From positions 683,402 to 706,603 of the forward strand of contig MU646391.1 of assembly GCA_026770585.1 (NCBI GenBank): a DNA stretch of 23,202 nt. The letters run 5' to 3'. The first letter of the stretch is position 1. Every line of letters starts with the position of its first letter. This DNA comes from Baffinella frigidus. Lineage: Eukaryota > Cryptophyceae > Cryptomonadales > Baffinellaceae. Shown piece after piece: positions 51 through 13,159 of the stretch. Position numbers and translations under genes: made by a program. The notes under the pieces are model-generated. The model was not told the DNA's origin and searched no databases. It saw nothing but the letters and a program-made list of their open reading frames with translations.

Positions 51-52
<2 letters not shown>

Positions 53-13159: not shown

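What the first reader, a model, noticed from the sequence alone, without database searches (positions are those of the whole stretch)
51..13159. Introns grown by rule: 5'-half exon copies upstream, 3'-half copies downstream
In gene 1, partial exon copies are polar. Upstream introns hold acceptor plus 5' half (exon 2 five times, exon 6 five, exon 10 four, exon 11 three, exon 7 two). Downstream introns hold 3' half plus donor (exon 2 two, exon 5 two, exon 6 two, exon 11 three). Complete exons occur once. Tandem duplications with one breakpoint in the exon and one in the intron give exactly this; the last acceptor and first donor stay attached to the whole exon, so each event is nearly neutral and lengthens the intron. 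I know of no described intron-growth ratchet of this form.
Basis: partly seen in the sequence, partly recalled or inferred. Interest (0 to 1): 0.95.

Follow-up and report, generated by a model that had tools for sequence, protein, structure and literature searches.

The report
Half-exon copies crowding an alga's introns
In a cryptophyte alga, introns hold broken copies of the neighbouring exons, front halves before the exon and back halves after it, as local duplications across splice sites must leave them, yet the copies look as if they came from other working versions of the gene.

Summary
Gene 1 is a minus-strand aldo/keto reductase (Tas-like) gene of a cryptophyte alga (382 Mb genome). Its 12 exons give 25 non-self matches inside the gene against 0 in the other 9.8 kb of the window and 0.04-0.22 for shuffled exons. 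Of 23 direct matches, 12 are 5' parts upstream, 10 are 3' parts downstream, 1 is an odd internal piece; no whole exon is copied. Gene 3 gives 8 of 8 with the right polarity; HSP70 genes on two other contigs fit.

The polarity is not a new rule: a direct duplication spanning one splice site can leave nothing else if the intact exon survives. But the copies are not plain dead duplicates. Differences sit at third codon positions (pN/pS 0.17 copy-exon, 0.25 copy-copy), many C<->G, and the copies' GC3 equals that of the exons. With one working version at a time, pN/pS should be at least about 0.5. So several functional versions must have coexisted, most likely diverged alleles or homeologs joined by unequal exchange. 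A single boundary-crossing duplication is in print (potato, PMC4974935); my searches listed no serial form. No RNA was available.

The parts
12980..13159 (-). exon 1 (start codon, signal-like N-terminus)
   Evidence: ORF and match to Hanusia protein
11180..11301 (-). exon 2, intact
11385..12451 (-). five 5'-half copies of exon 2, first bases at 12451, 12304, 12148 (split by a MITE, resumes at 11998), 11856, 11465
   Evidence: all five keep the acceptor AG
10899..11075 (-). two 3'-half copies of exon 2 (11075-11026 and 10942-10899), donor GT kept
10466..10522 (-). exon 3
9653..9698 (-). exon 4
8805..8906 (-). intron tail plus first 11 bases of exon 5, upstream copy; acceptor AG lost
7937..7996 (-). 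exon 5, intact
7577..7784 (-). two 3'-half copies of exon 5 with donor and intron start (7784-7744, 7628-7577)
6870..7433 (-). five 5'-half copies of exon 6 (7433, 7295, 7226, 7037, 6922); acceptor AG kept in 2 of 5
6658..6759 (-). exon 6, intact
5547..6473 (-). three 3'-half copies of exon 6 (6473-6429; 5893-5853 plus 5713-5688, split by a MITE; 5564-5547), donor GT kept
4663..4722 (-). exon 7
4140..4187 (-). exon 8
3408..3464 (-). exon 9
2482..2890 (-). four 5'-part copies of exon 10 (2890, 2749, 2644, 2501), acceptor AG kept in all four
2304..2396 (-). exon 10, intact
2150..2204 (-). 3'-half copy of exon 10, donor GT kept
560..604 (+). inverted 3'-half copy of exon 10, inside a 173-nt inverted repeat
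1301..1795 (-). three 5'-part copies of exon 11 (1795, 1457, 1318), acceptor AG kept
1127..1196 (-). exon 11, intact
642..1029 (-). downstream copies of exon 11: 1029-985 (3' half with donor); 897-862 and 690-642 (internal pieces without splice sites)
54..118 (-). exon 12, cut by the window start
18157..18677 (-). gene 3 exon W (18563-18477) with 5' copy upstream (18677-18632) and 3' copy downstream (18178-18157)
19116..20011 (-). gene 3 exon X (19386-19261) with three 5' copies upstream and one 3' copy downstream
20330..20683 (-). gene 3 exon Y (20404-20330) with two 5' copies upstream

Best explanation
Shown: introns of this cryptophyte hold serial, local, direct duplications that span one splice site. 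Each leaves a part-exon with its acceptor upstream, or with its donor downstream, of the one intact exon. Inferred: (1) a part with only one splice site is normally skipped, because an exon needs both, so such joins survive while whole-exon duplications, which would change the message, do not. (2) Most joins were made by unequal or illegitimate exchange between diverged, still functional versions of the gene (alleles, homeologs or recent paralogs), so a copy was already different from its neighbour at birth; it then decays neutrally and the array is reshuffled by further exchange and by transposon insertion. Introns thus grow by bearing remnants of other versions of the same exons.
For: Copies, adjacency and polarity: (gene 1: 22 of 23 direct matches; gene 3: 8 of 8); HSP70 genes on contigs C62 (3 copies, by eye) and C226 (2 acceptor-side copies, both upstream). 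Local direct repeats cover 11-50% of five other readable stretches. Separate functional history: minimal changes at codon positions 1, 2, 3 are 22, 17, 57; pN/pS 0.17 (CI 0.12-0.29) for 24 copy-exon pairs and 0.25 (0.15-0.39) for 26 copy-copy pairs; 0.23 for 8 hand-aligned pairs of gene 3 and HSP70. C<->G makes up 20 of 45 two-state third-position columns, against 2 of 37 at positions 1 and 2 and 11-15% of mismatches in noncoding repeats. GC3 is 0.86 in the 16 copies counted and 0.88 in the intact exons. Yet 4 of 27 splice dinucleotides are lost, about 7% per base, close to pN (0.055) and far from pS (0.32): time spent dead is short, divergence is old. Intron tails beside the exon 2 copies fall into types that match each other at only 0.31-0.53 while the exon parts match at 0.68-0.91, as expected if they came from different versions. 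All four exon 11 copies that reach this point read GLLAY, as Hanusia does, while the intact exon reads GLMAY.
Against: No near-identical second version of the gene was found by the three genome searches that bear on it, though most stretches fetched were withheld, and a fourth search did not complete. A synonymous distance of 0.32 is very large for alleles. The mod-3 test on repeats without annotation found 5 of 158 pairs at p<0.05, no more than chance, so the coding signature is seen only where exons are known. Copies of one exon are not independent of each other, and two of the four acceptor losses may be one event. In the smaller set single pairs vary: exon W 5' copy carries a stop, and one HSP70 copy has more nonsynonymous than synonymous changes. 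One exon 11 copy and one inverted exon 10 copy do not fit a simple direct duplication. Two like-for-like pairs of the exon 2 array show intron 0.75 beside exon 0.92 and 0.82, only a modest difference.
Confidence: 0.5

Rival explanations
1. One reading: ordinary tandem duplication of an intron-exon boundary on one chromosome, each copy dead from birth and decaying neutrally, so introns lengthen by near-neutral steps.
For: Adjacency, direct orientation, polarity and homology running across the splice site; gene 3 exon W copy has a stop codon and mixed changes; splice-site loss 4 of 27 fits neutral decay.
Against: pN/pS 0.17 and 0.25 against a lower bound of about 0.5 when only one version is functional at a time; third-position changes rich in C<->G; GC3 kept; intron tails that hardly match beside well-matched exon halves.
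Confidence: 0.25
2. The copies are used: as alternative 5' or 3' parts of exons, or as stepping stones for recursive splicing (acceptor AG directly followed by GTGAGC-like donors in the exon 2 copies), and are kept by selection.
For: Acceptor AG kept in 14 of 18 and donor GT in 9 of 9 copies; coding-type divergence also between copies; the five exon 2 copies begin AG|GTRAGC or AG|GTCAGC.
Against: Exon 2 copies run into in-frame stops soon after the half (frames); one exon 10 copy and one exon 6 piece contain stops; two copies are split by MITEs; 4 of 18 acceptors are lost; a 5' half cannot supply the rest of the exon.
Confidence: 0.15
3. Mobile elements captured exon pieces and dropped them into introns.
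For: Foldback elements and MITEs lie among the copies; the inverted exon 10 piece sits in a 173-nt inverted repeat.
Against: 23 of 23 direct matches lie in introns touching their own exon; exon 2 and exon 10 regions hit only this gene in the searches of the own genome, of which only part can be read. The two MITEs looked at lie inside half-exons, so they came later.
Confidence: 0.05
4. Assembly or chance artefact.
For: None beyond the repeat-rich sequence.
Against: The copies found at E<=0.01 differ from the exon by 4-24%, so they are not collapsed reads; shuffled exons give 0.04-0.22 matches against 25.
Confidence: 0.03

Closest known systems
Boundary-crossing tandem duplication in the potato RdRp gene (PMC4974935; abstract and passages read)
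   Same: A direct duplication across an intron-exon junction, leaving an upstream partial exon with its acceptor and a downstream intact exon.
   Different: One event, which gave a new intron with a donor from the previously exonic segment; here there are series of up to five copies per exon side, on both acceptor and donor sides, in several genes, and coding-type divergence.
Tandem genomic duplication model of intron gain (AGGT-containing exonic segment; described in the abstract of PMC4974935)
   Same: Same mutation class; several introns here also have AG|GT at both ends, and intron starts weakly resemble the next exon start (p 0.02-0.05).
   Different: Here existing introns are enlarged; no duplication of a purely exonic AGGT segment was shown.
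Introners (transposons that make introns; named in passages of PMC12730881)
   Same: An algal genome rich in long introns and inverted-repeat elements.
   Different: Half-exons are specific to their own gene in the searches made and not dispersed families; the two MITEs looked at sit inside half-exons, not as whole introns.
Tandemly duplicated, mutually exclusive exons (recalled)
   Same: Diverged exon copies beside the exon.
   Different: No copy found is whole or has both splice sites.

Membership tests
Boundary-spanning tandem duplication | copy is in direct orientation in the intron next to its parent exon | tested here: met
   23 of 23 direct matches by their coordinates; 2 further matches are inverted
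Boundary-spanning tandem duplication | homology runs across the splice site into the intron | tested here: met
   exons 5, 6, 10, 11 and part of exon 2; 3' copies of exons 2 and 10 stop within 5 bases of the donor
Boundary-spanning tandem duplication on one chromosome with a dead copy | divergence of the copy as expected from neutral decay of the copy and constraint on the parent (pN/pS of at least about 0.5) | tested here: not met
   pN/pS 0.17 and 0.25; poorly matching intron tails
Tandem genomic duplication intron gain | a new intron is spliced out, using duplicated signals | not testable with these tools
   no RNA data for this organism
Introner | near-identical family dispersed over many genes | tested here: not met
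   exon 2 region hits only its own gene; exon 10 region likewise; only part of the genome can be read
Mutually exclusive duplicated exons | complete exon with both splice sites | tested here: not met
   no whole copy among 25 matches
Tas-like aldo/keto reductase (gene 1) | homology over the domain | tested here: met
   P0001 63% identity over 96% of the query, PF00248 precomputed for it; Pfam was not run on the gene itself

The most novel reading that the evidence does not exclude
Introns in this alga act as an archive of other versions of their own gene: repeated unequal exchange between deeply diverged functional versions leaves polar half-exons, so one haplotype carries sequence of alleles or homeologs that it no longer uses, and intron length records such exchanges.
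Probability: 0.35. Interest if true: 0.85.

Novelty: new variant of a known kind. Interest (0 to 1): 0.62.

Why it matters
Why introns become long is mostly put down to transposons (recalled). Here a good part of the intron sequence is short local duplication, some of it across splice sites, and part-exon copies were seen in the four genes examined (gene 1, gene 3, two HSP70 genes; gene 2 was not tested for them). Because each copy freezes a stretch of coding sequence, the copies can be dated and read, which makes the origin of intron length and the number of gene versions that have met on one chromosome directly testable. Intact decoy splice sites (23 of 27 kept) also make these genes a natural test of how the spliceosome ignores half-exons.

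Tried and rejected
Random 10-kb stretches of the genome were mostly withheld (N), so a genome-wide polarity count was not possible. An HSP70 profile search without letters was too insensitive for half-exons. A mod-3 test on unannotated repeats was at chance level, 5 of 158 pairs. A distant paralog on contig C1172 was checked as a source and rejected (68% identity over 105 columns of exon 2). Self-gene conversion and swapping of intact and dead copies on one chromosome were considered; neither can bring pN/pS below about 0.5, because two contemporary lineages share one functional slot (inference). Dispersed element capture was rejected on adjacency. That no whole-exon copy was found is only suggestive of selection: with units near 150 bases I would expect perhaps a quarter whole (my estimate, no call). 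In one search the MITE-split copy was placed three bases out of register (its first base is 12148), so its exon identities there are a little low.

Full report
What the locus is. The window is G000:C89:683402-706603 of a 382-Mb assembly in 1364 contigs. Gene 1 lies on the minus strand and encodes a Tas-like aldo/keto reductase; its best relatives are a Hanusia phi protein (63% identity, 96% coverage) and a eukprot record tagged Tamp (66%, 87%), which I take for Teleaulax amphioxeia. That both are cryptophytes is recalled. Long-read cryptophyte genomes are given as 200-600 Mb and more than 60% repetitive (PMC12220804, passages). Twelve exon models of 46-180 bases, the first eleven in one open frame, are separated by introns of 475-1935 bases. 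Exon 12 is cut by the window start, and the sequence beyond is withheld.

The observation. Twelve exons searched against the gene region gave 25 non-self matches at E<=0.01, 0 in the other 9.8 kb of the window, 0.04 and 0.22 for two kinds of shuffled exon, and 0 for reversed exons. Of the 23 direct matches, 12 are 5' parts upstream and 10 are 3' parts downstream. One is an internal piece of exon 11 downstream. Two more are inverted: one strong piece of exon 10 inside a 173-nt inverted repeat and one weak. By their coordinates the 23 direct matches all lie in an intron touching the parent exon; nine exon-sides all in the expected intron have a chance of 6e-10 under uniform placement. Eight more short copies (first bases 8815, 7295, 5564, 2749, 2501, 1457, 1318, 897) were found at weaker scores, with flanking sequence, by protein match or by eye.

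Other genes. In gene 3 (minus strand), five exon models were searched; three (W, X, Y) gave 8 matches, all 8 of the right polarity, and two gave none. In an HSP70 gene on contig C62, one exon has a 3' half downstream and another has two 5' parts upstream, seen by eye in the sequence (tblastn with a recalled HSP70 stretch also marks the first). In an HSP70 gene on C226, one of two exons tested has two acceptor-side copies upstream and a 13-base piece downstream; the other has none. Gene 2 of the window was not tested. Direct repeats within 4 kb cover 37, 42, 21, 50 and 11% of five other readable stretches, so local duplication is common in the part that can be read.

Why polarity is expected. 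A direct duplication with one end in the intron and one in the exon gives part-exon, intron, whole exon. Any survivor that keeps a whole exon has 5' parts upstream and 3' parts downstream. Polarity therefore diagnoses local direct duplication against dispersed insertion, but is not a rule of growth. The matches cross the splice site into the intron for exons 5, 6, 10, 11 and part of exon 2. In exon 2 the order of intron tails along the array (types B, A, B, A', A) suggests that a dimer was itself duplicated (my reading).

What does not fit plain dead copies. Counting minimal changes over the aligned gene 1 copies gives 22, 17 and 57 at codon positions 1, 2 and 3 with nearly equal numbers of sites (361, 360, 356). 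For 24 copy-exon pairs pS is 0.324 and pN 0.055, ratio 0.17 (95% interval 0.12-0.29 by resampling exon-sides). For 26 copy-copy pairs the ratio is 0.25 (0.15-0.39). Left out of both counts were the short copies at 8815, 7295, 2501, 1457, 1318 and 897, the 21-base match at 2204-2184 and the two inverted matches; the MITE-split exon 6 copy counts as two rows. Eight hand-aligned pairs from gene 3 and the C62 HSP70 gene give 0.23; the three 5' copies of exon X and the two on C226 were not included. If only one version of an exon is functional at a time, the constrained time of two lineages cannot exceed half of their total, so the ratio should be at least about 0.5 (inference, assuming a clock). 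C<->G makes up 20 of 45 two-state third-position columns and 2 of 37 at positions 1 and 2, against 11-15% in noncoding repeats of gene 1, C50, C100, C150 and C20, and GC3 is 0.86 in 16 copies against 0.88 in exons: this is the mark of codon usage. By contrast acceptor AG is lost in 4 of 18 copies and donor GT in 0 of 9, a decay of about 7% per base. So the copies have been dead for a short time but separate for a long one.

Reading. Several functional versions must have existed together. Diverged alleles or homeologs joined by unequal exchange explain this most simply, including the poorly matching intron tails beside matching exon halves and the GLLAY, shared with Hanusia, in all four exon 11 copies that reach this point, where the intact exon reads GLMAY. 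No second near version was found, but most stretches fetched were withheld. Use of the copies in splicing remains possible, because most decoy sites are intact; stops, MITE insertions and lost acceptors speak against it.

Results against. The mod-3 test on unannotated repeats was at chance, 5 of 158 pairs at p<0.05. Copies of the same exon are related to each other. The distance of about 0.3 at synonymous sites is extreme for alleles of one species. Two like-for-like pairs of the exon 2 array show only a modest excess of exon over intron identity.

Known and new. A single duplication across an intron-exon boundary is described in potato (PMC4974935, abstract and passages), where it led to intron gain. 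Eight literature searches (the last returned nothing) listed no paper that I recognised from title or abstract as describing serial, polar half-exon copies as a source of intron length; most subscription papers are outside that library. I rate it a new variant of a known kind.

Noticed in passing
gene 1, gene 2, gene 3 of the window and C62:290501-296900 (L036, L037): Telomere-type repeats are strand-biased in these genes: strict CCCTAAA against TTTAGGG on the sense strand is 16:1, 3:1, 17:2 and 51:0. The CTAAC/CTGAAC units resemble branch points with a pyrimidine tract (recalled); several introns of the C62 HSP70 gene are largely made of them (sequence).
   Followed up: partly
window 5709-5856 and 11998-12138: Two members of one short inverted-repeat element (ends TTATCCGGGGAAACC or close to it) are inserted in half-exon copies of exons 6 and 2, each flanked by an apparent 5-base direct repeat, read by eye.
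   Followed up: partly
window 306-843; 475-647 with 2105-2277; 2944-3154; 6263-6379: Foldback structures with arms of 58-173 nt at 91-96% complementarity.
   Followed up: no
window 478-547, 2205-2274, 5060-5114, 6807-6874, 7635-7709, 10801-10892: A dispersed element of about 55-90 bases (AGTTGAC...GGTACAAATC.GTCAACTTT) in both orientations.
   Followed up: no
gene 1 and C62 HSP70 introns: The first bases of introns weakly resemble the first bases of the next exon (for example GTACCC/GTACCC, GTCTTCGAG/GTGTTCGAG), p 0.02-0.05 over 18 introns: a possible trace of intron gain by duplication. Exon ends and intron ends show no such likeness.
   Followed up: partly
window 13159-12980: The predicted protein starts with a signal-like stretch followed by AFVAP, like plastid-targeting leaders of algae with red secondary plastids (recalled).
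   Followed up: no
G000 contig C709, 130108-131931 and 132798-134621: Two HSP70 genes, each open over the whole domain and with equal scores, in head-to-head orientation.
   Followed up: no
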